From the NCBI GenBank assembly GCA_022447665.1, contig JAKVAQ010000001.1, positions 1 to 64,000 on the forward strand: DNA of 64,000 bases, given 5' to 3'. The notes beneath the pieces were generated by a model. That model made no database searches and had not been told where the DNA came from. It was given only the letters and a program-made list of their open reading frames with translations. This document shows, one piece after another, positions 1 to 11,160 of the stretch (its first letter is position 1; each line of letters opens with the position of its first letter). Origin of the DNA: Crocinitomicaceae bacterium. Its GTDB lineage: Bacteria > Bacteroidota > Bacteroidia > Flavobacteriales_D > Crocinitomicaceae. The position numbers and the translations under genes are program-made.

Positions 1-1557
1 GATGAAATTACAGAGTCGGCAGGTGGAGATTCAGGATCACTCAAGTGGGCAGCTATTGAAGATGCAGCGGGATCAGAAGATAGGGTCAATAAAATTGCGG
101 CAGATGTCTTGAGCCATTTTAAGAATAGAACAGCAACCTTACCTGGTAAAGCCATGGTCGTGTGTATGTCTCGGCGTAATTGTGTCAAGATGTATGACGC
201 CTTAACCGCTCTGGAAGGATGTCCAGAAGTAGCTGTGATCATGACAGGAAATATCTCAAAAGATCCAACAGAATGGAATCCACACATCCGCACCAAAGAT
301 GCTATGGAGAGTATTAAGCAGCGCTTTAGAAAACCAGAAGACCCATTAGAGATAGTCATAGTAAGAGACATGTGGTTAACTGGATTTGATGCCCCTTGTA
401 TTCATACCATGTATGTAGATAAGGTGATGAAAGGCCACAATTTAATGCAAGCCATTACCCGCACCAATAGGGTGTTTAAGGATAAAAATTCAGGTTTAAT
501 TGTCGATTATATTGGGATAGGCGATCAGTTAAAAGATGCCACGAATAAATACACAGGTAGCGGAGGTGCAGGTAAACCAACCATAGATATTGAGCAAGCT
601 TTAGAGATGTTCTACAATCAGGTAGATACATGTAAAGCCTATCTATCTGAGGATATCGATTATTCTAATTGGCGGGCTTTGGGAGATGGCGATAAGATGT
701 TGTTGGTCAAAGCGGCATCCAATCATATTCTGAAGGATGACAAAGCATCAACATCCTTCTTAACTGAAGAAAAGAAGATGAGCGGATTGGTGGCAATCGT
801 CAAAAACCAACCAGAAAACATATCAGATCAAGTGGTGGATGTCTTATACATTCAACACATTGCCAAGGCGATTAGAAAGATCAAGTCTGTCAAATCGGAG
901 CGCAACCAACAAAGGGATCAAATCAAGGATATCATCTCTCGCAGTATTGAGTCAGATGAAATTGTGGATGTCTTTGCCATGGCAGGAATTGAGAAACCAG
1001 ATATCTCCATACTGAATGATGAATTTCTATTGGGCGCCAAAGAAGACAAAACAGGTCTAGCCATCAAAGTAGAGATGTTACGAAACATTCTCAAAGATGA
1101 AATCAAACTGAGGTTAAGAAAGAACATCAAATTCTACACCTCTTTAAAAGAAGAAATAGAAAAAGTGATTGACAGATACCACAGCAATGCAATAGATTCT
1201 TACACAACTATTTTAGAGCTAGTAGAACGCGCCAAAGACATGCAAACAGCAGATGTCCGAACCAAAGAACTTGGTTTGTCAGATGAAGAACTAGCATTCT
1301 ACGACATCTTATTTGCCAAGCAAGACATCATCAATGAAAAAGGAAAAATCCAAGACATTGTACATGGCGTGGTTAAAGCTGTAAAATCCAACCTCCAGTT
1401 AGATTGGACGAAAAAAGAAAACGCTAAAGCAGCAATTCGCTTAGCGGTCAAAAAAGAACTTAGAGGAAAAGTCACAATATCAGAACTAAATAAAATCCTT
1501 GCAGAAATCATGGACCAAGCTGAGGGTCAATACTCAGAATGGCCAGCTGCGGGGTAG
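1..1557 (+). CDS. hsdR: Type I restriction enzyme R subunit, C-terminal part (5' end outside window)
   Basis: The frame is open from base 1, so the gene begins before the window; about 518 residues are visible. HsdR is the ATP-dependent translocase and endonuclease subunit of a type I restriction complex and works with HsdM and HsdS. The visible part starts in the second RecA-like helicase domain: the stretch around residues 120-135 contains DMWLTGFDAP (motif V region) and is followed by the MYVDK..KGHNLMQAITRTNR segment (motif VI region), which is highly typical of HsdR. The remaining 300 residues are the helical C-terminal region (DUF3387-like) that contacts the methylase core. The nuclease domain and helicase motifs I-III must lie upstream. 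HsdM and HsdS are not in this window. The C-terminus looks complete. Confidence 0.93.
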   Translation, partial: DEITESAGGDSGSLKWAAIEDAAGSEDRVNKIAADVLSHFKNRTATLPGKAMVVCMSRRNCVKMYDALTALEGCPEVAVIMTGNISKDPTEWNPHIRTKDAMESIKQRFRKPEDPLEIVIVRDMWLTGFDAPCIHTMYVDKVMKGHNLMQAITRTNRVFKDKNSGLIVDYIGIGDQLKDATNKYTGSGGAGKPTIDIEQALEMFYNQVDTCKAYLSEDIDYSNWRALGDGDKMLLVKAASNHILKDDKASTSFLTEEKKMSGLVAIVKNQPENISDQVVDVLYIQHIAKAIRKIKSVKSERNQQRDQIKDIISRSIESDEIVDVFAMAGIEKPDISILNDEFLLGAKEDKTGLAIKVEMLRNILKDEIKLRLRKNIKFYTSLKEEIEKVIDRYHSNAIDSYTTILELVERAKDMQTADVRTKELGLSDEELAFYDILFAKQDIINEKGKIQDIVHGVVKAVKSNLQLDWTKKENAKAAIRLAVKKELRGKVTISELNKILAEIMDQAEGQYSEWPAAG

Positions 1558-1564
1558 AAACATT

Positions 1565-1666
1565 ATGGGATATTTCTTGGACAGAGACGAACTTATTAAA
1601 GAATTGTACAAAGTTCTTGGTGAAGCAAAGCGTGAACTATTTATAGTTTCACCAGCTGCGCAGTAG
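1565..1666 (+). pseudogene. Remnant of a PLD-like domain gene (33 codons)
   Basis: Seven bases after hsdR an ATG opens 33 codons ending RELFIVSPAAQ-stop. The segment LIKELYKVLGEAKRELFIVSP resembles the first strand and helix of phospholipase-D-like nuclease domains that often accompany restriction systems, where the IVSP strand is followed by a long domain. Here it stops inside a short inverted repeat, and the following 200 bases show no continuation in any frame. I infer a gene cut short by a rearrangement at about 1655-1670. It could also be an unrelated small ORF. Confidence 0.4.
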
Positions 1667-1680
1667 CTGAGCTGCTGCGC
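1658..1680. repeat. Short perfect-stem inverted repeat
   Basis: GCGCAGTAGC and GCTGCTGCGC form a 10-bp stem (one G-T pair) around a TGA loop. It overlaps the stop of the truncated PLD-like ORF and marks the point where coding sequence ends. There is no T-run, so it is a poor intrinsic terminator. It may be a repeat end or a rearrangement junction. The 200 bases from here to the next gene are GC-richer than the surroundings and hold nothing I can name. Confidence 0.5.
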
Positions 1681-1878
1681 CATTAATCAATCCAAAGAAG
1701 CTTAACATTAGCAAAATTTCCCACTCCTCACAAAGGCGGTATCGTGCTTTGAAAGCGCCAAGCTAGAAAAACGCAAAGCAAACGTGGCGCGCCAGCAAAC
1801 GCTTTGGTGCAGTATTTTTTCTTTGGCGGTGAAAAGTACATTTAGCCGGCGGGAGGACTAGGTGGCCAAAAAACAAAC

Positions 1879-2898
1879 CTACACCCCCTGCAAAACCCTT
1901 CGATAACTTCCATGCCGTATCCCCAATTGGTTTTTGAGCAATTGAAAATTCCGGATGAAATCGGGGTGTGAAATGGTAAGGTATTCTTTTAATCTTTTGT
2001 CCTGAGTGTAGTCCCAGCGATGGTCGCGGCCAATAAGTGAGTCGGCCAAGTGCATGTATAATTCTGTGGTATAACCATCGGCATTGGAATTCATATTAGG
2101 CAGGGTTTTTAATATCCACTCCATGGCTTTCCAAGAAGGTTGGCCAAACCAATGTCCTGTGGCATTGCGCGGGGTGTACCCACTACCATGGGTATATACA
2201 GACTTATTATAGGCATGGAGCCTTTTAGGCTTTAAAGAAGAAAGCAATAAATTACCCGTACTCGGATGGCTCACTGCTGTACCTATTTTATTTGCCCCAA
2301 CAGCCACGAGCGGCCCAATTCCTTTTTTACCTTTTCCGTAAGGATAATAGGGAGGCCTAGGTACTTGTTCTTCGGTAACCCAGCGCAAAGGCGAACGCAC
2401 GGGTATTTTTGCCGGCTTCGCCATTTCGTTTACAATACCTAAAAATGAAGGGCTCCAAAAGTGAATGTTTTGGTGCGAAGAAATGGCATCTATTTTATGG
2501 GCATCGCCTAAATAGTTCACCAAGGACTGGAATTGCGCTAAAAGCTCGGCTCGCATTATGGGCATTGAAGTAGCGGCGTGCTTATAGAGGTTTAATCCCT
2601 TGTAGGTGTAATAAGCAACGGCAGGGTCGTGAGGGTGAATGCCATAAGTATGCTTAAAACTCGCTGGCATTTGCAACATGGCCGGCCCCCACGTGGTATT
2701 GAGGTGTAAACCTATTCCGCAATTATTTCCACTGGCGTTTATTACCTGGCGCAAGGCATCGAGCTCTTGCCGTGAAACTAAGTTCATCATCACATGCACG
2801 GAAGTGATGATTCCGGCCTTAACACCGTTGCGTATGGCGTTATTGCAACTTGGGTTTAAGCCGTAATCGTCGGCAGTTATTATGAGACCTGGGTTCAT
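1879..2898 (-). CDS. ChbG/YdjC-family carbohydrate deacetylase
   Basis: A 339-residue protein of the ChbG/YdjC family (PF04794-like), metal-dependent deacetylases that remove one acetyl group from N-acetylated oligosaccharides. Near the N-terminus IITADDYGLN carries the paired metal-site aspartates (D10, D11); GIGLHLN (H65) and ISSHQNIH (H142, H146) match the family's histidine motifs, although the usual DgHqHvH is altered to SSHQNIH. The segment from about residue 190 to 260 is not typical and may reflect a divergent substrate. No signal peptide, so probably cytoplasmic. Base composition is higher in GC than most genes in the window, which may indicate transfer. Single gene with repeats on its upstream side. 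Confidence 0.75.
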   Translation of the reverse strand: MNPGLIITADDYGLNPSCNNAIRNGVKAGIITSVHVMMNLVSRQELDALRQVINASGNNCGIGLHLNTTWGPAMLQMPASFKHTYGIHPHDPAVAYYTYKGLNLYKHAATSMPIMRAELLAQFQSLVNYLGDAHKIDAISSHQNIHFWSPSFLGIVNEMAKPAKIPVRSPLRWVTEEQVPRPPYYPYGKGKKGIGPLVAVGANKIGTAVSHPSTGNLLLSSLKPKRLHAYNKSVYTHGSGYTPRNATGHWFGQPSWKAMEWILKTLPNMNSNADGYTTELYMHLADSLIGRDHRWDYTQDKRLKEYLTISHPDFIRNFQLLKNQLGIRHGSYRRVLQGV

Positions 2899-2946
2899 CT
2901 CTTAAATATAGCAAAACGCTAATTTTTAGTCGTTCATCCCAAATCT

Positions 2947-3082
2947 AGGTTTGTTCGAGTGATTATGCGAGACCGTCGTCGAGTATAATTGTATCGAGAA
3001 CACTCCGGGCGGTGAGCATTACTCCTAATTCGGCATGTTCTCGATACAACCCCTCGTCCCTCGGGCCCACTCGAACAAACCT
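2947..3082. repeat. Palindromic repeat, full copy A (nested inverted repeat)
   Basis: The outer arms AGGTTTGTTCGAGTG (2947-2961) and CACTCGAACAAACCT (3068-3082) are exact reverse complements. Inside lie TTGTATCGAGAACA (2989-3002) and TGTTCTCGATACAA (3036-3049), also exact complements. The transcript would fold into a long two-tier hairpin. A second full copy lies at 8486-8616 and right-half copies at 7108-7154 and 7656-7702. It carries no ORF. It is probably a non-autonomous palindromic element or REP/BIME-like repeat. Confidence 0.85.
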
Positions 3083-3275
3083 TGAGTCTAGTCAAGATTT
3101 AAAGACCTCCCCTTCACAAGGCGACGTGTTGAGCTTGTCGAAGTAGGAGGTACCCAGAGGGTGGAGGGGTACCAGAATACTCGGTGCCCAGAGGGCGGAG
3201 GGGTTTTAACCACAGCTACCCGAGGATCGAAGGCATTATCCTTAGAAAGATTATCCTTAAATGCCGGCACTTTAA
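3083..3275. repeat. Right flank of palindrome A shared with other repeat copies
   Basis: After the palindrome the sequence continues with a block related to the flank of copies C and D: a TCTAGT.AAGATTTAAA segment, CTCCCCT, a GGCG.CGTG.TGAGC..GTCGAAGTAGGAGGT segment and a GAGGGGT run, then a block with AAGGCATTATCCTTAG and GCCGGCAC that recurs near 7297-7325 and 12345-12385. The repeat unit is therefore a mosaic several hundred bases long. A 60-codon antisense ORF here is an artefact of the repeat. Confidence 0.65.
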
Positions 3276-3321
3276 CCGTAGTGTGTCTATCTTAAAAGAC
3301 TTAATAAGAAACACTACTTAA

Positions 3322-3500
3322 TATTATGAATATTTCAGAAGATGTAAGGCATATAATCTTGGCTTACCCTTCGATTCTATTTTTGGAAATAAACATGATT
3401 TTTTGGAGGCAAATGGAAAAATGATAACTTTAAAGATAGGCCTCCTTTAAGAAAAAAAGTTAGTGAAAGTATTGAACACATTTTAAAAAATTATGATTAA
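3322..3500 (+). pseudogene. Possible degraded gene remnant, frameshifted
   Basis: From 3322 one frame reads YYEYFRRCKAYNLGLPFDS followed by IFGNKHDFLEANGK, then ends at 3450; a second frame continues the same protein-like character from about 3405 to a stop at 3498-3500 with KNDNFKDRPPLRKKVSESIE and so on. No start codon is evident. The two halves read smoothly if one frameshift near the A-run at 3416-3422 is assumed. I do not recognise the family. The last bases overlap the start of the next gene. Confidence 0.3.
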
Positions 3501-3909
3501 AAATCTTCTTTTAGCTCTAATATTATGGGGCAACTTGAGCCAAGTTTATGCCCAAGATAATTTTTCTTTTGAAGTACTTGAGGCTAGCGATACTATTATA
3601 GATAATACCAAAAATATAAAGGTGAAAATCACATTTTCAACAGTAGATGGCGCTATTCATTACCCAGAAATTTTGGTGTATAATAAAAAGAAAGAAAAAC
3701 AAGTATATACCACTGGTCTAATGAGTTATGTCCATGTTTTGGATATGTCTTATTCCTTTTTTATCCCAAAAAGACTCTTTAAACTCAAGAAATATAGGGT
3801 AAAGCTAAAATGCGCGCTTAATACTAGTTCATCTAAAAGAATACAGGCCACCTATGAATTTGAGTTTAAACAATTGCATAAGTCTATCAAGTCTCTTTTA
3901 AAGGGATAA
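3493..3909 (+). CDS. Secreted protein of unknown function (138 aa)
   Basis: A 138-residue protein with a clear signal peptide (charged MIK, hydrophobic LLLALILWG, cleavage after VYA). The mature part is rich in alternating polar and hydrophobic residues (IKVKITFSTVDG, PEILVYNKKK, YRVKLKCAL), which suggests an all-beta, perhaps immunoglobulin-like, fold. It has one cysteine and no recognisable motif. It lies 245 bases upstream of the candidate RiPP precursor on the same strand; that gap holds no gene I can support. Whether it belongs to the same transcription unit is uncertain. It is not recognised as a known family. Confidence 0.65.
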   Translation: MIKNLLLALILWGNLSQVYAQDNFSFEVLEASDTIIDNTKNIKVKITFSTVDGAIHYPEILVYNKKKEKQVYTTGLMSYVHVLDMSYSFFIPKRLFKLKKYRVKLKCALNTSSSKRIQATYEFEFKQLHKSIKSLLKG

Positions 3910-4154
3910 TTGCGCAGAGCAAGAATTATCTCGAAGGCTTTGTTCTTAGATATAATGAGCTAAATACGGGCACTTCAAGACAGCAATCCGCGACAATCTC
4001 CGATCTCCTTCTAACAATATACAAAGCTGCCTTAGAAGAAAAAGCGTATTTTTCACAATTTTAGATTGGTACCAAAAATGTATGTAACTTATTAAGCCTA
4101 TATCGTTACTTCTATGGCATGATAATTGTAATTTGCTATTTAAACTATAATTCT

Positions 4155-4445
4155 ATGAAATTCAAAAAATCTTTCATCTTTGGTACAAGCTTTCTTTTGA
4201 GCTCAGCAGCAGTGGCTAATTCTAATAATTTATTTGAAACTACCGAACTTGGTAACTCAGAAACAATTAAGGAATCTATTGTGGCTTCTAACAATTTAAA
4301 TTCTTCTTGTGATTTAACAGTTTTAGCACCATTAGAATTATGTTGCGCTTACGGAAATCCTAGAGACTTCAAGAAACAAAGTAGAAAATGGAAACGCGCT
4401 GCTAGAAAACAGAAAAGAATAGATAGAAGAAACGCTAGAAAATAG
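4155..4445 (+). CDS. Candidate MNIO-modified RiPP precursor, secreted, C...CC core and basic tail
   Basis: A 96-residue protein. The ATG at 4155 is preferred to an ATG at 4119 because it gives a proper signal peptide (MKFKKSFIFGTSFLLSSAAVA, cleavage after A21). The mature region has an acidic/polar linker (22-50), then three cysteines, C52, C63 and C64, in the stretch SCDLTVLAPLELCCAYGNP, and then a very basic tail (73-96, 14 of 24 residues Lys or Arg). Three bases separate its stop from the MNIO gene. Known MNIO precursors (bufferin type) are also small, carry Sec-type signal peptides used as leader, and are modified on cysteines; that is family knowledge. I infer that C52/C63/C64 are the modified residues. 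The basic tail could bind nucleic acid, membranes or a partner. I do not recognise a named precursor family, so the role is inferred from operon position. Confidence 0.65.
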   Translation: MKFKKSFIFGTSFLLSSAAVANSNNLFETTELGNSETIKESIVASNNLNSSCDLTVLAPLELCCAYGNPRDFKKQSRKWKRAARKQKRIDRRNARK

Positions 4446-4448
4446 TCT

Positions 4449-5252
4449 ATGGGAATATCTGTTGGATTAGGACTTCGGCGTGAAATAACAGAAGCACTTC
4501 TCCATCTCGAAAATCAAAAGCCTGCATTTTTAGAAGTTGCTCCAGAAAACTGGATGGAAATTGGTGGGTATTGGGGTAATCTATTCCATCAAATTTCTGA
4601 AAAATTTGAACTTACAGCGCATGGGTTATCTTTATCCATTGGTGCTAAGGATGAATTAAATATTCCCTTTTTAAAACGTCTAAAATCATTCTTAGACGAA
4701 TATTCAATCTCATTGTATAGTGAGCACCTGGCGTTTTCTACAATGAATAACGCCCATTTGTATGAATCTTTACCTGTAGCTTTCACTGATGAATCGGTAA
4801 AACACATTTCTACGCGTGTTAAGCAGGTTCAAGAAATTCTTGAAAGAAAAGTTATCCTTGAAAATGTAGTTTATTATACGCTTATAGATCAAGAACTATC
4901 TGAGTTAGATTTTTATAACGCAGTAGCTTCCGAAGCGGATTGTGAAATTCTGCTGGACTTCAACAATGTATTCGTAAATGGCAAAAACTTTAATTACGAT
5001 CCTTACGAATTCATCTCAAAAATAGATACTTCCAAAGTTTCTTACCTACATGTGGGGGGGCACCAAGAACAAAATGACGGGCTATTACTTGATGCTCATA
5101 ATAACCCAATAAAACAGGAGGTGCTTGATTTGATTAGAAAAACAAAACACAATTTCAACGCTGATAAGCTACTATTTGAAAGAGATGCGAATCTGGATGA
5201 TTTGAATGAACTTTTAGCAGAAATTAAACGCATAGAAAAATCACTTGAGTAG
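4449..5252 (+). CDS. DUF692-family multinuclear non-heme iron oxidase (MNIO, BufB/MbnB/TglH-like)
   Basis: A 267-residue TIM-barrel protein of the DUF692 family. Family members bind two or three iron ions and oxidise cysteines in ribosomal peptides (MbnB in methanobactin, TglH, BufB, ChrH). Diagnostic segments in order: GLGLR (6-10), FLEVAPENWM (27-36), TAHGLSLSIG (56-65, H58), YSEHLAFS (90-97, E92/H93), ILENVVYY (136-143, E138), LLDFNNVFVN (168-177, D170), YLHVGGH (199-205, H201/H205), DAH (215-217) and LLFERD (241-246, E244). These histidines, acids and asparagines lie where the family's iron ligands occur. The length is close to the usual 270-290. It sits between the candidate precursor (3-bp gap) and the partner protein (8-bp overlap), the normal arrangement for a precursor-MNIO-partner trio. 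Confidence 0.88.
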   Translation: MGISVGLGLRREITEALLHLENQKPAFLEVAPENWMEIGGYWGNLFHQISEKFELTAHGLSLSIGAKDELNIPFLKRLKSFLDEYSISLYSEHLAFSTMNNAHLYESLPVAFTDESVKHISTRVKQVQEILERKVILENVVYYTLIDQELSELDFYNAVASEADCEILLDFNNVFVNGKNFNYDPYEFISKIDTSKVSYLHVGGHQEQNDGLLLDAHNNPIKQEVLDLIRKTKHNFNADKLLFERDANLDDLNELLAEIKRIEKSLE

Positions 5253-5976
5253 TCGCAATAAACATATTGATAAATCTGAAGCGCTTGCCTTATTTAGTCA
5301 GGGAGATGAAAGTGTACTCGAAAACTTAAAAGACCTCCATAATATTGATGTTTATCGTGAAATGGTGCAAAGAAATTTCCATTTACATCTATCAAAATCC
5401 TTTGGTCTAAGTAAAGCTGCAATTCAAGGAACGAAATGGGAAAGCCTCGTCAATGACTTTATTCAACATGGCCAGCCTAAGTCAAAATTATTTTGGCAAA
5501 TGCCGGGGGAGTTTCTTGAATTCGCATCAGCTAAAATAGAACATTGGCAAGCCGATTTAATGAAATTTGAATGGAGCCAAGTACAACTGTATTTCGCACC
5601 TGATTATAACAGAAAAGGAACCAAACCTTTTTCTTATCACCCGAGCCACATTGCTGAATTACATGATGAATGGTCTATCCTTAATTTTGAATATCCAGTG
5701 TATAAAATTAAATGGGAAGACTTAGAGCAACATAAAGGAAATTATTTCTTACTCCAATTTAGAAATCAAAATACGTTCGAAATTGAAAATATTGAGTTGA
5801 ATATATTCTTGAAAGAACTCATGTTAAATTTATCTACTCAACAATTCAACCTTGCACAAACCTTGACGGAGACATTGACAAAGTTTAATACGTCAATTAG
5901 TCCTCAGATTAATGAGCAATACCAAAATTTCATTCACCTCTTAACACAAAAAAACATCATAGTAGGTTTGCTATAG
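5245..5976 (+). CDS. MNIO partner protein, DUF2063-like (BufC/ChrI type)
   Basis: A 243-residue protein. Its N-terminal half has the hallmark of DUF2063-type MNIO partners: YREMVQRNFHLHLSKSFGLS, then WESLVNDFIQ, a P/S-rich turn, LFWQMPGEFLEFA, and then the FEWSQVQLYFAP segment. In characterised systems such proteins bind the leader peptide and deliver the precursor to the iron oxidase. The start is a TTG at 5245 that overlaps the MNIO stop by 8 bases; the next in-frame ATG is 38 codons on and would remove the family motif, so TTG with translational coupling is preferred. It is predicted cytoplasmic. The C-terminal half (about 130-243) is less conserved and probably beta-rich. Confidence 0.75.
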   Translation: MSSRNKHIDKSEALALFSQGDESVLENLKDLHNIDVYREMVQRNFHLHLSKSFGLSKAAIQGTKWESLVNDFIQHGQPKSKLFWQMPGEFLEFASAKIEHWQADLMKFEWSQVQLYFAPDYNRKGTKPFSYHPSHIAELHDEWSILNFEYPVYKIKWEDLEQHKGNYFLLQFRNQNTFEIENIELNIFLKELMLNLSTQQFNLAQTLTETLTKFNTSISPQINEQYQNFIHLLTQKNIIVGLL

Positions 5977-5991
5977 CCTAATCCTCTTCGT

Positions 5992-6837
5992 ATGAAAACA
6001 TCCTTATTTTTATTCAGTCTTTTATGCTTTGGCTCTCAAATATTTGCTCAACAAAAATGGATTTCTGACGTCCAAATAGAGCAGAATGGAAAAATAATTT
6101 CTGCTAAAAAAGGCGTTGTGAATATTAATCAAACTCCTTTTAGTTTTATCCTCAATACGCGTTTAAATAATCAAGGCGTTTATTTAGGAATTTTATCGTT
6201 TACCGAAGATGACACAATTCCAGAAGAAAAATACACTAACGCAAGTATTGGCGGTGCTTTCAGCTATGGCTCAAAAGATAATATTCTATATGTATGGAAA
6301 GAAAAAAGAATAACATATCTTCCTTATGAAAATGATTCCATGCACTGTTTTGATAGTACATCTTACAAAGGGAAATGGCTAACTGGATATTACCATGTTG
6401 ATGAGATTTCTACACAAAACGAATATTCAAAAATTGAAGATTATAAAGACAGCATACTCTTTTGTTACATCGCCGCATTGATTCCGAATAAATCAGGAGG
6501 CCATCATGTGTTGGATGAATTTGTCTTAGAAATTCATATGCACCCACAATCCATAGCGCCAAACCAAGTTAAGGGCAAAACTTTTAGTGAGCCTTCAGGT
6601 GAATTTGAAGAAGGATGCGAAGGATGCGGTAATGGCGCATATTTTCAGTTTTCAAAAGACGGAAACACATTAGAATATCTCTTATCTGGTTCTGACATAA
6701 TATCTTTTGGTTACTATAAACAAGAAGGTAACCAGGTATATATTCTTGAAACCGAATATTCGTTCACTATCTCCGAAGACGGCACCATCCTATCAGATAA
6801 TTTGTATGAAAATATCACCTACAGGATAGAGGAATAA
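5992..6837 (+). CDS. Secreted protein of unknown function with a CxxC motif, last gene of the MNIO operon
   Basis: A 281-residue protein with a signal peptide (MKTSLFLFSLLCFGSQIFA). It starts 15 bases after the partner gene, so it is probably co-transcribed. The mature protein looks beta-rich. Around residues 199-210 it holds GEFEEGCEGCGNGAYF, a CxxC within a Glu/Gly context, and an isolated cysteine occurs near residue 119. The CxxC could bind metal, form a disulfide, or be an additional MNIO target, since Glu-Gly-Cys contexts are typical of some MNIO substrates. All of that is inference; I recognise no family. It could also be a periplasmic acceptor or effector that works with the modified peptide. 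Confidence 0.6.
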   Translation: MKTSLFLFSLLCFGSQIFAQQKWISDVQIEQNGKIISAKKGVVNINQTPFSFILNTRLNNQGVYLGILSFTEDDTIPEEKYTNASIGGAFSYGSKDNILYVWKEKRITYLPYENDSMHCFDSTSYKGKWLTGYYHVDEISTQNEYSKIEDYKDSILFCYIAALIPNKSGGHHVLDEFVLEIHMHPQSIAPNQVKGKTFSEPSGEFEEGCEGCGNGAYFQFSKDGNTLEYLLSGSDIISFGYYKQEGNQVYILETEYSFTISEDGTILSDNLYENITYRIEE

Positions 6838-6935
6838 GATTACTGTTGTTTATGGAGAAGTATTGTGCACAATGCCACTCAATCCCGGCACTGGCGCCAC
6901 CGCTATAGCTTCATGCGCACACGGTCGAGACACCA

Positions 6936-6987
6936 CTCAGTTTCGCTTACTCCAACTTTATCAGATGGTGCTCGATCTCTCAGTGTT
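6936..6987. repeat. Partial copy of stem-loop repeat family
   Basis: Starts CTCAGTTTCGCTTACTCCAAC, continues TTTATCAGATGGTGCTCGAT and ends CTCTCAGTGTTC. It matches the ends of the copies at 7331-7405 and 20134-20208 but lacks their central hairpin segment (CAATCCTTCACG.GCAGTGC.CG), so it looks like an internally deleted copy. Confidence 0.65.
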
Positions 6988-7104
6988 CTTCATTCTGCAA
7001 AAAAAACATAAGTTTTTTCTTTAAGTAACCGTACCAACTTTAAAAAAATTAAAGGTCACTGAGCCTGTCGAAGTGCCGACTAATCAGCAATTTTTCTAAT
7101 TACT

Positions 7105-7227
7105 GAATGTTCTCGATACACCACCTCGTTCTTCGATGCCACTCGAACAAACCTCAATTCTAGTTAAGATTTAAACTCCTCCCCTGATTTAGGCGCCGTG
7201 CTGAGCGAAGTCGAAGTAGGAGGTCCC
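7105..7227. repeat. 123-bp direct repeat, copy C (right half of palindrome plus flank)
   Basis: Begins GAATGTTCTCGATACACCAC and ends GAAGTAGGAGGTCCC. It matches 7653-7775 with one difference seen by eye (CTCGTTCTTC here, CTCATTCTTC there). It contains the right arms of palindrome copies A and B (TGTTCTCGATACA, CACTCGAACAAACCT) but not the left arms. Confidence 0.85.
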
Positions 7228-7330
7228 TGAAAGGGAGAGGGGTAATCAACCACAAGATGGTGCCTGAGGGATTCGAGGAACGAGAATTGTCTCGAAGGCA
7301 TTATCCTTAGTAAGCCGGCACTTCGAGACA

Positions 7331-7405
7331 CTCAGTTTCGCTCTATCCATCTTTATCAGACGGCGCTCAATCCTTCACGAGCAGTGCTCGTTCTCTCAGC
7401 GACCT
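7331..7405. repeat. Stem-loop repeat family, full copy
   Basis: A 75-bp unit from CTCAGTTTCGCT to CTCTCAGCGACCT. Its centre is a 7-bp perfect stem, ACGAGCA-G-TGCTCGT (7377-7391). The copy at 20134-20208 has the same layout, and its stem is ACGGGCA-G-TGCCCGT, that is, an A-T pair replaced by G-C on both arms. Confidence 0.8.
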
Positions 7406-7652
7406 ACACTTTTACACTTTCTTTGCATACTTCTAAACCGGCACTTCGACAGGCTCAGCGACCTAACATTTTTGTCATAATTATCATTTGTAGCACGTAG
7501 CGCTTCCCTCTTTGGAGAGAAGAGAAAGCACTGCTTTCGAAGACCAAACGTTTAGAGCCGGGAGAGGGAGAGGACCCTAATTCTTACATAAATCAACACC
7601 TCCCCCTTGAATCCCCCTCCAAAGGGAGAAAACAAATCATCCTAAAAACCAG

Positions 7653-7775
7653 GAATGTTCTCGATACACCACCTCATTCTTCGATGCCACTCGAACAAAC
7701 CTCAATTCTAGTTAAGATTTAAACTCCTCCCCTGATTTAGGCGCCGTGCTGAGCGAAGTCGAAGTAGGAGGTCCC
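7653..7775. repeat. 123-bp direct repeat, copy D
   Basis: Nearly identical to 7105-7227, at a fixed offset of 548 bases. It ends about 36 bases before the start of the SDR gene, so the repeat probably forms part of that gene's upstream region. A 548-bp tandem unit or two independent insertions would both explain the arrangement; the sequence between the copies is not duplicated elsewhere in the window. Confidence 0.85.
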
Positions 7776-7810
7776 GAAGGGGGTGGGGTAAAAACCCTTA
7801 CCTTTACACC

Positions 7811-8476
7811 ATGTCAAAAACAGCCATAGTTTTAGGAGGTACTGGACTCACAGGTTCGCACTTAATCACCAAATTATTAGAAGACGATAATTATTCAAAA
7901 GTCAAAGTATTTGGGCGTTCAAGTATTGGCATTGAACACCCGAAACTAGAAGAGAAAATCATGGACCTCCTGAACATGGAAGAACATAAAGCCAAGTTCA
8001 ACGGCGATGTTCTATTCTGCTGTATTGGCACCACAAAAAAGAAAACTCCCAACCAAGAGCATTATCATAAAATTGACTTTGGAATTCCAGTTAACGCAGC
8101 GAAATACAGCAAAGAAAATGGGATCAATTCCTTTGCTGTAATGTCATCCATGGGAGCGAATCATAAAAGCTCTATTTTCTACAGCCGTACAAAAGGTGAA
8201 ATGGAAAATGCAGTACTTGGAATGGGTATTCCCCATACTTATATTCTTCGTCCAGCACTTATTACAGGAAATCGAAATGAGAAGCGTGGAGGTGAAAAAT
8301 TCTTTGCCGGTATAATGCGCTTTTTTGACCTCTTCATGTTTGGAGGTTTAAAGAAATACCGCTCTATTAAATCAGAACGAATTGCGGAATGTATGATTCG
8401 TTTAGCGGCCTCAAACACCCATCAAAGAATCATTGATTCGGGACAAATTCAGCAAATTGCAGATAATGTAAAATAG
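7811..8476 (+). CDS. NAD(P)-binding atypical short-chain dehydrogenase (TIP30/HTATIP2-like)
   Basis: A 221-residue Rossmann-fold protein. The N-terminus AIVLGGTGLTGSHL contains the GxxGxxG dinucleotide-binding loop. VFGRSS follows the second strand, LFCCIGTT is at the position of the fourth strand, and FAVMSSMGAN with Y..TKGEME corresponds to the Ser and YxxxK region of the SDR family. Length and motifs fit the small NAD(P)H-binding, atypical-SDR group that includes human TIP30. Bacterial members are mostly uncharacterised oxidoreductases. Cytoplasmic, single gene, with repeats on both sides, so likely monocistronic. Confidence 0.8.
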   Translation: MSKTAIVLGGTGLTGSHLITKLLEDDNYSKVKVFGRSSIGIEHPKLEEKIMDLLNMEEHKAKFNGDVLFCCIGTTKKKTPNQEHYHKIDFGIPVNAAKYSKENGINSFAVMSSMGANHKSSIFYSRTKGEMENAVLGMGIPHTYILRPALITGNRNEKRGGEKFFAGIMRFFDLFMFGGLKKYRSIKSERIAECMIRLAASNTHQRIIDSGQIQQIADNVK

Positions 8477-8485
8477 CTAGAATTT

Positions 8486-8616
8486 AGGTTTGTTCGAGTG
8501 ATCCCGAAGAATGAGGGATTGTATCGAGAATACACCGGCTTTTAAGAAAGACTTTTGATTCGGTATGTTCTCGATACAAATTGATTCCTTCGTCATCAAC
8601 CCACTCGAACAAACCT
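8486..8616. repeat. Palindromic repeat, full copy B
   Basis: Outer arms AGGTTTGTTCGAGTG (8486-8500) and CACTCGAACAAACCT (8602-8616) are perfect complements and identical to those of copy A. Inner arms TTGTATCGAGAATA (8519-8532) and TGTTCTCGATACAA (8566-8579) pair with one mismatch. The interior is unrelated to copy A apart from the arms. It lies nine bases after the SDR stop codon and lacks the long right flank seen in A, C and D. It could act as a 3' stabilising hairpin for the SDR transcript. Confidence 0.85.
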
Positions 8617-8638
8617 AAAATCTGTTATTAAGGAATAG

Positions 8639-9027
8639 TCACTCCGCGATCAACGCATACTCCGAAGGTGTATAATACTGCCCTTGAAAGTAAATAAGAA
8701 CAGTAGTATTGGATAATCCACGGTCTAAATAATCTTGCAACGCCTCATCTGCAGCCTCTTGACTTTTGAAGTGTGGTGAATAGAATTCACCTTGCCCATG
8801 TTCTTTTGCAATACAACTTGCTCCTTCAATGTTTCCAATAATAGCGACTTCCTTATAAGAATCATCTCCCCAAAAACACCAAGAAAAACACAATATTCAG
8901 CCGATGTAGCTTTAACGGGCTTATCATTAGGATTTTCTCTATCTGTATTTATTTCTGAAAAACTACTAAAAGAAAGTACTGCTAGGATCAGCAAAGAACT
9001 GATCGATAATTTACGTAATGATCTCAT
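8639..9027 (-). pseudogene. Exported SPOR-like small protein, broken by one frameshift
   Basis: Reading from the ATG at 9027 the protein starts with a signal peptide (MRSLRKLSISSLLILAVLSF) and reaches YCVFLGVFG; from there the sense continues in another frame as DDSYKEVAIIGNIEGA to YYTPSEYALIAE, ending at 8639. Joined, it gives about 129 residues. The order (YCVFLGVFG, F.SQEAADEALQDYL, TTVLIYFQGQYY) resembles SPOR domains, which bind denuded peptidoglycan, but this is a weak match. The break lies in the run CCCCAAAAA at 8868-8876, where one missing base restores the frame. A homopolymer sequencing error is as likely as true decay. Confidence 0.6.
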
Positions 9028-9165
9028 AATTTGGTTATTGTGTTTTTATGTATGCACGCATTTAGAAGAAAGTTTCAAATCAAGTCTTAAGGTCGTTCTT
9101 TCCTTTTCAAATCTTTTCCCAATTACACTATAGAACAATGCCTTCATTATTCACAATCTCTTAAT

Positions 9166-9867
9166 ATGTTTATTGCTGAAAATCCCTATCTTAAAACTCC
9201 TAAAAATCAATCTAATATGGACCAACTTCTTCAAGATTACAAAGCCTATTACAAGGCAAGAATGGAGCGATGGGAAGGAAACCCTCTCTACCCAAATTCT
9301 TATCAAAGCGAAAAAGCATTGTTTGAAGCCATGGACTCTTGCAATGAACTTATTGAATTCAAGGATAAAATTGGCGACTTAAATGTTAAAAATGCCATTG
9401 CATTGGTAAAGGACAAAGAAACCGCCCGCTTAAAACATTATCAAGAGCTACAAGAAAACGTTCGTGCTAAAGGTCCTGAATTTGTAATGGGAAGGATTGG
9501 TTCCGCGACCTCAGACATGAATTTAGTGGAAATTGCTACGAAAGCTGATCATGAAGCTATGATTCTAATTGCTGTGGATGAAATGACCGATCATTTTTAT
9601 GGAGACATCATCCCTCGATTAGAGACCCTTGATATGCTTCGTAATATTGAAGGAGCTGAAAATTATAAAAGTGATATTGAATACAGCATTCAAGAAGAAT
9701 TGAAGAAAATAAAAGAGGGCGTTCAAGACCTTGAAGATAATGCCCAAAGTTGGCAAGAAGGATGGCGATTTAACCCTGATTTAATTTGGGAACATCGCCA
9801 CCGAAAGCGCATTCCATTACCCGATAATGTGCTTCAAAAAAGATTAACCGAATACAAAAACCTTTAA
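9166..9867 (+). CDS. Uncharacterised cytoplasmic helical protein, first gene of a two-gene operon
   Basis: A 233-residue protein. An in-frame ATG at 9217 (MDQLLQDYKAYYKARM) is an alternative start and may be the real one, because the first 17 residues are poorly protein-like. It is highly charged and predicted mostly helical, without signal peptide or membrane segment. Tryptophan-containing segments (ARMERWEGNPLYPN, WQEGWRFNPDLIWEHRHRKR) are likely conserved landmarks. I recognise no domain. Its stop is three bases before the next start, so the two products probably act together in the cytoplasm. Confidence 0.65.
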   Translation: MFIAENPYLKTPKNQSNMDQLLQDYKAYYKARMERWEGNPLYPNSYQSEKALFEAMDSCNELIEFKDKIGDLNVKNAIALVKDKETARLKHYQELQENVRAKGPEFVMGRIGSATSDMNLVEIATKADHEAMILIAVDEMTDHFYGDIIPRLETLDMLRNIEGAENYKSDIEYSIQEELKKIKEGVQDLEDNAQSWQEGWRFNPDLIWEHRHRKRIPLPDNVLQKRLTEYKNL

Positions 9868-9870
9868 GCC

Positions 9871-11160
9871 ATGCCTATAGATCCAATGATACTAAATCCC
9901 ATGTTAGACACATTTCGTAACATGGCGAAAGAAATAAACGATAAGGGACTCACTGGCGATGCCGTTGATAGAATGAACTCTGCCCTGCAACGTATGGAGC
10001 AAATGGGCCAAGAAGAAAGTGACATCATGGCCTTTACCGGTAAAATGACATCAGAAGGTTTACAATTAGAATTCTCAAATGCCTATGGTTTGGCACTTTC
10101 AGAAGAAGCTAAAACAGCTCAAGGGAGTGCTGAGGATTATGACGATGCCGGCTTATTAAAACAATCCGTAGATGCTTTACGCAGTGCAATTACCGAATTA
10201 AAGCGGGCCAAAGAAGAACAATTAGCCGAAGCAGCCAAAAAAGCAAAAGATAAAACTGCTTTAGAAGTAGCTCAAAATGAAATTGAAGTGCTCAATAATA
10301 ATGATATCATTATCAAGGCCATTGAAGACCTCATTGAATTTGGAGAATCAGGGGTGAATTTGCCAACCTTCTTGCGTGTGCAAATGGAAAAAGGACTAGA
10401 CAAAGCAATGGAAGGTTCCGCTGTTGTAAGAGAAGGGCTTGTTTACTCTAAGGGATGGGCCGATGCTTCTCGCATTAACCCATACAACATGGAAAAAGCA
10501 GCGCAACATTTAGCTCTATTCGATGAGCTTTCGAGTGCAGCAAAATTTGGTGTTCCGGATGGGCTTCAAGTGACTTTAGCGCATGATAAAATTGACCATC
10601 AACATCTTCCAGCGATCGCTAAATGGGATGGAATAACTAATGCATGGGAACGTATTATTAGCTTAATTGAAACATGGGCCTACGCGCACATGAGTTTCGC
10701 TGATCAAGTTTTCCCGTGGAATACAATGACTAATCCATGGCCAGCTATTGAACGCGTAAAGGCCACCAACCCTGGTGAAGTATGGGGTAGACTGCGTATT
10801 TTTCAAGAAAATTTTGGTATGTCTTTTCACGATATCTTCTCGCACGAAACTTTTGAATGGAAAGTAAAAAACTACCAGCTTGGGGGATCACAATTATGGA
10901 TGGAAACGATTATTCATAAAATCTATCCGCAATGTAAACCTGGTCAGCTTTTAGACCAAGAAACAATTACAGAAGTAGAGCGCCAATACAAAGAAAACTT
11001 AATGGTCAACCCAGAAAATCATAAAGATACTGATCGTTTTATCGGATTCTTTGACTCTGTTTTTGGTGAAGGCGCTTTTGAGAAGAAAACCGGTCAGCGC
11101 TATAATTATGGAAATCGTCCTGCACAGCCATGGGATTTAAACACCTTTAGAAAGGGTTAA
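9871..11160 (+). CDS. Uncharacterised cytoplasmic protein, second gene of the operon
   Basis: A 429-residue protein without signal peptide or membrane segment. Residues 1-170 are helical and coiled-coil-like (LKRAKEEQLAEAAKKAKDK), with FTGKMTSEGLQLEFSNAYGLAL near residue 60. The C-terminal half is globular and rich in Trp and aromatic residues (AKWDGITNAWERIISLIETW, FPWNTMTNPWPAIERV, SFHDIFSHETFEWK). I know no family with this pattern. It is co-transcribed with the preceding gene (3-bp gap). A lipoprotein gene follows after 65 bases and may or may not belong to the unit. No function is assigned. Confidence 0.65.
   Translation: MPIDPMILNPMLDTFRNMAKEINDKGLTGDAVDRMNSALQRMEQMGQEESDIMAFTGKMTSEGLQLEFSNAYGLALSEEAKTAQGSAEDYDDAGLLKQSVDALRSAITELKRAKEEQLAEAAKKAKDKTALEVAQNEIEVLNNNDIIIKAIEDLIEFGESGVNLPTFLRVQMEKGLDKAMEGSAVVREGLVYSKGWADASRINPYNMEKAAQHLALFDELSSAAKFGVPDGLQVTLAHDKIDHQHLPAIAKWDGITNAWERIISLIETWAYAHMSFADQVFPWNTMTNPWPAIERVKATNPGEVWGRLRIFQENFGMSFHDIFSHETFEWKVKNYQLGGSQLWMETIIHKIYPQCKPGQLLDQETITEVERQYKENLMVNPENHKDTDRFIGFFDSVFGEGAFEKKTGQRYNYGNRPAQPWDLNTFRKG

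What the first reader, a model, noticed from the sequence alone, without database searches (positions are those of the whole stretch)
4155..5976. Candidate new MNIO RiPP pathway: exported C...CC peptide with a poly-basic tail
A small exported protein, a DUF692 iron oxidase and a DUF2063-like partner are packed with a 3-base gap and an 8-base overlap. This is the arrangement of precursor-MNIO-partner trios (bufferin, TglHI, chryseobasin pathways). The precursor, however, has an unusual make-up: signal peptide, C52, C63/C64 in SCDLTVLAPLELCCAYGNP, and a 24-residue tail with 14 Lys/Arg. It is unlike the DUF2282-type bufferin precursors I know. A modified CC pair beside a cationic tail could make a metal-binding or a nucleic-acid/membrane-binding peptide. 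That the peptide is the substrate is inference.
Basis: partly seen in the sequence, partly recalled or inferred. Interest (0 to 1): 0.82.

Follow-up and report, generated by a model that had tools for sequence, protein, structure and literature searches.

The report
Single-site oxazolin-like peptide pathway
Three adjacent genes look set to make a small exported peptide on which an iron enzyme probably modifies one cysteine, a stripped-down and positively charged relative of the copper-binding oxazolins, seen so far in four genomes of one bacterial family.

Summary
In detail: a 96-aa exported protein, a DUF692/MNIO enzyme and a DUF2063-type partner are packed with a 3-base gap and an 8-base overlap. 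The small protein has true relatives in three other genomes (4 of 240 searched in the family, window included), each directly upstream of an MNIO and its partner. The four MNIOs form one clade (100/98). Of the three cysteines only C64 is invariant, inside EL[C/N]CAY; C52 and the CC pair are not. The basic tail is kept and, in the one comparable pair, under purifying selection; none of 52 repeat-bearing precursors has a tail as cationic. The leader matches oxazolin-type precursors better than any of 300 shuffles, so ELxCA may be a single degenerate EGKCG unit; the core alone does not show this. The MNIO keeps the iron ligands, but a substrate-contacting Phe, present in 105 of 109 other MNIOs aligned, is Ala/Val/Ser here. 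All four enzymes miss NCBIfam's HvfB cut-off, which two of two oxazolin relatives tested pass. Verdict: a new variant of the captophorin/oxazolin pathway, one site plus cationic tail. Product and function are inferred.

The parts
4155..4445 (+). Precursor peptide gene, 96 aa, Sec-type signal peptide by inspection, homologous in 4 genomes of the family (window included)
4155..4217 (+). Signal peptide region (aa 1-21, ...SSAAVA), by inspection; no signal-peptide program was available
   Evidence: alignment
4218..4274 (+). Leader region (aa 22-40), holds NLFETTELGNSETIK, aligned with LF....LGSGxELRxEL of oxazolin-type precursors
4335..4352 (+). Core E61-L-C-C64-A-Y66; C64 at 4344-4346 is the only invariant Cys of the family
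4359..4442 (+). Poly-basic tail (aa 69-96, 15 Lys/Arg), kept in all four homologues
4449..5252 (+). MNIO (DUF692, PF05114), nearest to the HvfB model, 267 aa; iron-ligand positions intact, Ala247 in place of the usual Phe
4476..4481 (+). Arg10-Arg11, by alignment and motif the equivalent of FonB Arg15/Arg16, said to flank the substrate Glu
   Evidence: PMC12668002 passages
5184..5189 (+). Asp246 (by motif the proposed catalytic base, FonB Asp249) and Ala247 (by motif FonB Phe250)
   Evidence: PMC12668002 passages
5245..5976 (+). Partner protein, 243 aa, DUF2063/NGO1945-type (PME1), predicted fold matches PDB 3DEE

Best explanation
A single-site, oxazolin-derived RiPP pathway of the captophorin kind. 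The 96-aa precursor is bound in the cytoplasm through its signal peptide and leader by the DUF2063/RRE partner. The diiron MNIO then oxidises one cysteine, C64 in E-L-C-C-A, most likely to a 5-thiooxazole (loss of 4 H). The peptide is exported by Sec and its signal peptide is removed, leaving an extracytoplasmic peptide with one thiol heterocycle and a strongly basic C-terminal tail. The likely role is to bind Cu(I) or another soft metal, with the tail holding the peptide at anionic cell-envelope material. Shown here: the trio, the homologous family, the single invariant Cys, tail conservation, conserved iron-ligand positions, one clade of enzymes. Inferred: that C64 is modified, the 5-thiooxazole, metal binding, the tail's role. 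My estimates: trio with this peptide as substrate 0.9; C64 as the site 0.8; 5-thiooxazole 0.65; metal handling 0.45.
For: Adjacency: the family profile matches 5 of 240 family genomes at E 0.01, the four members (E 2.4e-44 or better, all immediately upstream of MNIO and partner) and G320, an oxazolin-type precursor before an MNIO (E 0.008); no copy elsewhere. The genes next to the trio are not shared among the four loci. Cys: C64 in 4 of 4, C63 in 2 of 4, C52 in 1 of 4. Selection in the pair G387/G389, dN/dS: signal-leader-core 0.020/0.432, linker 67-79 0.541/0.339, tail 77-96 0.065/0.868. Tail: net charge of the last 24 residues +10 to +13 in the four, below +10 in 52 of 52 CG-repeat precursors. 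Leader homology: profile alignment score 24.5, P 2e-5; 0 of 300 column shuffles reach it (best 15.3), reversed control 10.3; after its own members the family profile's best hits among the open frames of 137 loci are oxazolin-type precursors, E 1.4e-5 and up. Enzyme: H58, H93, E138, N173, H201, D215, H217, E244 in 4 of 4; N173/D215/H217 correspond by motif to HvfB N175/D242/H244, needed for activity (PMC13419390 section 23). Substrate rules: in double variants FonBC accepts Ala but none of the other tested replacements after Cys, and rejects charged residues there; all four homologues have Cys-Ala, while C52 is followed by Asp and C63 by Cys (PMC12668002 sections 11-12; one Cys-Tyr motif was accepted once). 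The Phe said to contact substrate positions 3 and 5 is lost where position 3 is no longer Lys: F in 0 of 4 here, 105 of 109 others aligned. Partner: confident model (pLDDT 90.8), best PDB match 3DEE/NGO1945 E 5.9e-8, then TglHI chains.
Against: The core segment alone does not align significantly to oxazolin cores (P 0.058), so 'degenerate EGKCG unit' rests on position and on the E/C/small pattern. The oxazolin-leader profile ranks the window precursor first of 930 window frames, but only at E 0.036. The 31 oxazolin-type precursors compared were picked by a leader pattern. FonBC did not modify a peptide with one repeat, only with two. G387/G389 have Glu at the proposed catalytic base. A single thiol is a weak metal site unless the peptide dimerises. 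No copper, DoxX or RskA gene was found among 4 window neighbours and 10 neighbours of the other loci scanned, although G387 has a sigma-70 gene about 6 kb away. L033, an oxazolin-type precursor, also ends in a Lys-rich stretch (11 of 24, net +8). Four sequences, two of them 85% alike, are few, and the Phe loss is one clade, not four independent events.
Confidence: 0.6

Rival explanations
1. MNIO substrate, but with different chemistry: the altered enzyme pocket (Phe to Ala/Val/Ser; Asp to Glu in two members) makes another product on C64 or the CC/NC pair, such as a cross-link, thioamide or Cys excision.
For: Long branches of the clade; Phe equivalent lost in 4 of 4, proposed catalytic Asp replaced by Glu in 2 of 4, His205 by Tyr in 2 of 4; all four enzymes below the HvfB cut-off of 360 bits: 324.9, 340.7, 277.4, 273.7.
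Against: The HvfB model is still the best NCBIfam match for all four; iron-ligand positions and the PME1-type partner are kept; the authors of PMC12668002 state that all characterised MNIO-PME1 cases install 5-thiooxazole (passage).
Confidence: 0.2
2. The cationic peptide is an antimicrobial or nucleic-acid/membrane-active RiPP, and the modified Cys serves stability or activity rather than metal handling.
For: Poly-basic tail kept in all four and constrained between G387 and G389, with a net charge reached by none of 52 CG-repeat precursors; Sec export by inspection.
Against: No immunity, transporter or protease gene in the trio itself; genes next to it differ among the four loci, though G387 has an efflux-type gene set (outer membrane efflux protein) upstream; no activity evidence.
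Confidence: 0.12
3. A degenerating oxazolin pathway: repeats lost, trio under weak selection, tail a leftover of Lys-rich spacers.
For: Rare (4 of 240 family genomes), long branches, oxazolin spacers and at least one tail (L033) can be Lys-rich.
Against: dN/dS about 0.05 for the signal-leader-core, 0.07 for tail and MNIO, 0.13 for partner in the one pair tested; core plus proximal tail is the best-conserved part between window and G400, 19 of 25; iron-ligand positions intact.
Confidence: 0.05
4. The small protein is not the substrate; the MNIO acts on another peptide and the exported basic protein is an accessory.
For: No product measured; peptides encoded elsewhere in these genomes were not searched for.
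Against: No room for another gene inside the trios: gaps of 2 to 17 bases before the MNIO and overlaps after it; leader related to oxazolin precursors.
Confidence: 0.03

Closest known systems
Oxazolin (HvfABC) and EGKCG-type precursors (Buf_EGKCG/oxazolin)
   Same: Gene order precursor-MNIO-partner, signal peptide, related leader (LF....LGSGxELR in Bacteroidota), HvfB as best NCBIfam model for the MNIO and HvfC for the partner, Glu at position 1 and Cys at position 4 of the unit
   Different: No EGKCG repeats; one conserved Cys followed by Ala; Cys/Asn instead of Lys before it; conserved strongly basic tail; MNIO below the NCBIfam HvfB cut-off; Phe equivalent lost; no RskA anti-sigma gene among neighbours scanned, whereas 3 of 3 family oxazolin loci scanned have one
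Captophorins (MNIO-PME1 5-thiooxazole peptides; fontiphorin FonABC)
   Same: MNIO plus DUF2063/RRE partner plus Cys peptide; minimal three-gene cluster like fon; Arg pair and iron-ligand positions kept
   Different: No Lys-Cys or Cys-Lys pair and no DUF2282, the three precursor groups named in PMC12668002; single site; product unknown
Bufferins (BufABC, DUF2282 / 6-12 Cys)
   Same: Signal-bearing precursor, MNIO, DUF2063 partner
   Different: No DUF2282 match; MNIO 232.7 bits against a BufB cut-off of 310; one conserved Cys
Chryseobasin / ChrH
   Same: Bacteroidota MNIO, signal-bearing precursor
   Different: No CPxCGxG motif; MNIO 52 bits against a ChrH cut-off of 600; has a PME1-type partner
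TglHI (pearlin)
   Same: MNIO with a partner whose fold the model matches (8HI7, E 4.5e-5)
   Different: Cys is internal, not C-terminal; precursor carries a signal peptide (that pearlin precursors lack one is recalled)

Membership tests
Captophorin (MNIO-PME1) | MNIO with intact iron ligands | tested here: met
   PF05114 284 bits; ligand-type positions conserved in 4 of 4; which residues are ligands rests on PMC13419390 for three and on recall and motif for the rest
Captophorin (MNIO-PME1) | PME1 partner: DUF2063 plus NGO1945-type C-terminal domain | tested here: met
   DUF2063 39.8 bits (cut-off 27.2); NGO1945_C 23.1, below its 27, in the window; both above cut-off in G400 and G389; Foldseek 3DEE E 5.9e-8
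Captophorin (MNIO-PME1) | Cys-containing precursor encoded next to the MNIO | tested here: met
   4 of 4 loci
Captophorin (MNIO-PME1) | 5-thiooxazole in the product and copper binding | not testable with these tools
   needs mass spectrometry, NMR and metal titration
Oxazolin (HvfABC) | EGKCG repeats in the precursor | tested here: not met
   single EL[C/N]CA, no repeat
Oxazolin (HvfABC) | MNIO above the NCBIfam HvfB equivalog cut-off (360 bits) | tested here: not met
   324.9; the other three 340.7, 277.4, 273.7; oxazolin relatives L005 380.2 and L064 388.4
Oxazolin (HvfABC) | Partner above the NCBIfam HvfC cut-off (142 bits) | tested here: not met
   86.5; but the partner of oxazolin relative L064 also falls short at 133.9, so weakly diagnostic
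Oxazolin (HvfABC) | Leader related to oxazolin-type precursors | tested here: met
   hhalign P 2e-5, 0 of 300 shuffles; weak by single-profile search, E 0.036
Oxazolin (HvfABC) | DoxX-like gene (HvfX) nearby | tested here: not met
   no DoxX match in the 4 window neighbours or 10 genes near the other three trios; other genes of the loci were not scanned
Bufferin | DUF2282 precursor | tested here: not met
   no Pfam family for the precursor at E 0.1
Bufferin | MNIO above BufB cut-off (310) | tested here: not met
   232.7
Chryseobasin | CPxCGxG motif and ChrH cut-off (600) | tested here: not met
   motif absent; 52 bits; motif from PMC12636315 passages
Methanobactin | MbnB cut-off (325) | tested here: not met
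   60 bits

The most novel reading that the evidence does not exclude
A distinct functional class of MNIO product: a targeted, polycationic, single-heterocycle peptide in which a conserved basic tail delivers one thiol heterocycle to a defined anionic target (outer membrane, extracellular DNA or a competitor's envelope), made by an MNIO clade whose substrate pocket changed together with the core (Lys to Cys/Asn in the substrate; Phe to Ala/Val/Ser and partly Asp to Glu in the enzyme).
Probability: 0.2. Interest if true: 0.75.

Novelty: new variant of a known kind. Interest (0 to 1): 0.5.

Why it matters
The CG-repeat precursors counted here carry 4 to 17 cysteines (52 of 125 loci examined), and FonBC failed on a one-repeat peptide. 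A natural substrate with one conserved site and its own enzyme clade would be a minimal system for asking how 5-thiooxazole MNIOs choose their cysteine, whether the Phe/Lys contact sets specificity, and whether one site is enough for metal binding. I know of no described peptide of this class with a conserved cationic tail; that is from memory and from the searches named in Tried and rejected, and the supplementary tables were not open to me.

Tried and rejected
Rejected: DUF2282 bufferin, chryseobasin, methanobactin and strict oxazolin membership. Rejected: 'the CC pair is the modified motif'. A single-sequence search with the precursor found only itself in 59 genomes, so relatives were found through the MNIO. 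An earlier MNIO tree of 15 rows grouped window, G387 and G389 only weakly (83/95) and warned of long branches meeting; the partner tree of 12 rows gave 94/96 with the same warning. The tree of 40 rows that includes G400 gave 100/98 without that warning; its rows were chosen by me out of the 113 aligned. The core-only comparison with oxazolins was not significant. The order sample gave no member outside the family, the phylum sample no further member (0 of 394 others). Upstream sequences were printed but no shared promoter motif was worked out. Supplementary tables of PMC12452194, whose text mentions hundreds of small Cys ORFs before MNIOs, were not open to me (no look-ups allowed), so the family may be listed there. 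Literature searches: MNIO + Crocinitomicaceae 0 papers; captophorin + Bacteroidota 0 papers; broader MNIO/oxazolin/captophorin/bufferin searches.

Counts to read with care; 125 loci gave an MNIO; 13 scoring 200 bits or less were dropped before alignment, leaving 112 plus the window (4 + 54 + 55 = 113 rows); duplicate loci of the same genes were skipped; the 55 'other/none' rows have no CG-repeat ORF within the distance searched and were not otherwise classified; the 31 oxazolin-type precursors were picked by at least two xCG and a leader pattern (LG[STN][GA]..[LIVQ]R and near forms); gammaproteobacterial precursors with another leader were left out, and a few of the 31 are not Bacteroidota (L063, L065, L068, L122). 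One search searched six-frame pieces of 30-400 residues from 137 loci, several of them repeats of the same genes; 52 of 125 loci had a CG-repeat ORF by my pattern; the tail comparison uses these 52; one pair of sequences, small counts; linker and tail ranges overlap by three codons.

Changed on re-checking: I had written that neighbours lack anti-sigma, copper or DoxX genes from ORF starts alone and have now scanned ten more of them; the tail claim now has a control; 'marine' was dropped because no call shows the habitat.
Full report
What is there. At 4155-5976 lie three genes in one direction: a 96-aa exported protein, an MNIO (DUF692, PF05114, 284 bits) and a DUF2063-type partner (39.8 bits, cut-off 27.2), with a 3-base gap and an 8-base overlap. 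A search of the own genome with PF05114 gives one match.

Relatives. A single-sequence search with the small protein found only itself in 59 genomes. Going through the MNIO instead, 17 of 399 genomes of the order had a match at E 1e-15; reading the ORFs upstream showed true precursor homologues in two of them, G387 and G389. A search of their genus (4 of 34 genomes with a match) added G400. G400's contig has the length and the precursor of L061, 'Crocinitomicaceae bacterium isolate DT_24', which names the family by inference. With a 4-row profile, the family search (240 genomes) gave 5 matches: the four members at E of 2.4e-44 or better, and one borderline (G320, E 0.008) that is itself an oxazolin-type precursor upstream of an MNIO. 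The order sample repeated this without G400 (4 of 399), and the phylum sample gave only the window (1 of 395). So the four homologues sit directly before an MNIO and partner, and none was seen away from one in these searches. The genes immediately flanking the trio are not shared among the four loci; G387 and G389 share two genes several kilobases away, and two matches link the window's wider surroundings to genes beside the G389 trio.

Conserved and not conserved. The alignment keeps a signal peptide, LG in the leader, P-x-E-L-x-C-A-Y, and K-x-Q-x-R-K with a basic tail. C64 is present in 4 of 4, C63 in 2 of 4 (Asn in G387/G389), C52 in the window alone; G400 has a different extra Cys at 24. 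Window and G400 agree in 19 of 25 positions over core and proximal tail, against 2 of 15 in the distal tail and 41 of 94 overall. In the pair G387/G389, dN/dS is 0.020/0.432 for residues 1-66, 0.541/0.339 for the linker 67-79 and 0.065/0.868 for residues 77-96. The counts are small, but the tail behaves as a constrained part behind a free linker. As a control, the last 24 residues of 52 CG-repeat precursors hold a median of 6 and at most 11 Lys/Arg (L033, net +8), and none reaches net +10; the four family members hold 14, 11, 13 and 13, net +10 to +13. Those 52 precursors have 4 to 17 Cys.

Link to oxazolins. Many of the MNIOs fetched from the order and class follow precursors with a leader LF....LGSGxELRxEL and CGE/EGKCG repeats. 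The family profile, run on six-frame pieces of 137 loci, ranks such precursors next after its own members (E 1.4e-5, 2e-5, 4.5e-4). A profile-profile comparison without signal peptides, against 31 such precursors picked by leader pattern, gave score 24.5, P 2e-5; 300 column shuffles reached 15.3 at most and the reversed profile 10.3. The leader part alone gave 19.6, the core part alone 8.7, not significant. The oxazolin-leader profile puts the window precursor first of 930 window frames but only at E 0.036. I read ELxCA as one degenerate EGKCG unit: Glu at position 1, Cys at 4, a small residue at 5. That reading of the core is inference.

The enzyme. A tree of 40 MNIOs puts the four in one clade (100/98; 100% of 200 bootstrap trees) on long branches; smaller trees without G400 grouped three of them weakly. 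Residues at the ligand-type positions are conserved in 4 of 4; N173, D215 and H217 match by motif the HvfB residues N175, D242 and H244 whose replacement abolished activity (PMC13419390, abstract and sections 4 and 23 read). In PMC12668002 (sections 11 and 12 and passages read), FonBC accepts Ala but no other tested replacement of the Gly after Cys in the double variants, rejects charged residues there in the motifs tested and accepts one Cys-Tyr motif once; a model places substrate Glu1 between Arg15 and Arg16 and Lys3/Gly5 against Phe250, next to the catalytic base Asp249. The same paper says that FonB Ala variants at Arg15, Arg16 and Phe250 still yielded modified product on co-expression (passage cut off in what I saw), so that Phe is a specificity mark rather than essential. 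In the four enzymes both Arg are kept, while the Phe is Ala, Val, Ser and Ser; it is Phe in 105 of 109 other MNIOs aligned. The exceptions are L122, L092, L042 and L043. G387 and G389 also have Glu at the base position and Tyr at His205. All four fall below NCBIfam's HvfB cut-off of 360 bits (324.9, 340.7, 277.4, 273.7), while two of two oxazolin-type relatives tested pass (380.2, 388.4).

The partner. AlphaFold2 gives a confident model (mean pLDDT 90.8). The best PDB match is 3DEE/NGO1945 (E 5.9e-8), followed by TglHI chains. PMC12668002 names 3DEE as a PME1 protein (figure legend). The MNIO model is also confident (mean 88.3) apart from residues 97-107.

Mechanism. By the class logic, the partner holds the signal-leader part, the MNIO oxidises C64, and Sec exports the product. 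HvfBC modified a version without the signal sequence poorly (PMC13419390 passage). That C64 rather than C63 or C52 is the site follows from conservation and from what stands after each Cys (Ala, Cys, Asp). The product, metal binding and the role of the tail are not shown. Against: FonBC did not turn over a one-repeat peptide, and no copper, DoxX or RskA gene was found among the 4 window neighbours and 10 genes near the other trios that were scanned. In three of three oxazolin loci of the same family that were scanned an RskA anti-sigma gene stands upstream. G387 has a sigma-70 gene about 6 kb from its trio and an outer membrane efflux gene next to it.

Novelty. PMC12452194 (abstract and sections 13, 15 and 17 read) says that hundreds of unclassified small ORFs with 1-18 Cys and signal peptides precede MNIOs of the large cluster; this family may be among them, in a table I could not open. 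No paper in the library holds both MNIO and Crocinitomicaceae or captophorin and Bacteroidota. I therefore rate it a new variant of a known kind, not a new kind of pathway.

Noticed in passing
window 3040-3160, 7060-7450, 7650-7790, 8520-8620: Interspersed intergenic repeats (e.g. CCACTCGAACAAACC at 3067, 7139, 7687, 8601; GTCGAAGTAGGAGGT at 3137, 7210, 7758) stand on both sides of a stretch of lower GC (0.33-0.35 in windows from 3501 to 6500, against 0.44-0.46 at 1501-3500 and 0.41-0.44 at 6501-8500, though 0.36-0.37 again at 8501-10000) that holds the trio and one exported gene on each side. A mobile or inserted block is possible.
   Followed up: partly
window 3493-3909 and 5992-6837: Two exported-looking proteins without a Pfam match above cut-off flank the trio; the second carries GCEGCG. 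No homologue was found in the stretches around the other three trios.
   Followed up: partly
L013/L014 MNIO (G387, G389): Glu in place of the proposed catalytic Asp and Tyr in place of a His that is invariant in the 109 other MNIOs aligned: an odd active-site variant.
   Followed up: partly
L016 and several of L042-L051: A second MNIO type in the same class follows long Cys-rich proteins (HACMGLNACKGHD...GGCG and the like), a different substrate family.
   Followed up: no
L122 3695-3995: A precursor from a record titled Verrucomicrobia with an oxazolin-like leader, a charged Lys-rich stretch and two Cys near the C-terminus; its MNIO also has Ser in place of the Phe.
   Followed up: no
L053 16562-17131, 10629-12089: In G387 an ECF-like sigma-70 gene lies about 6 kb from the trio, and an outer membrane efflux gene next to it; not seen at the other three loci.
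   Followed up: partly
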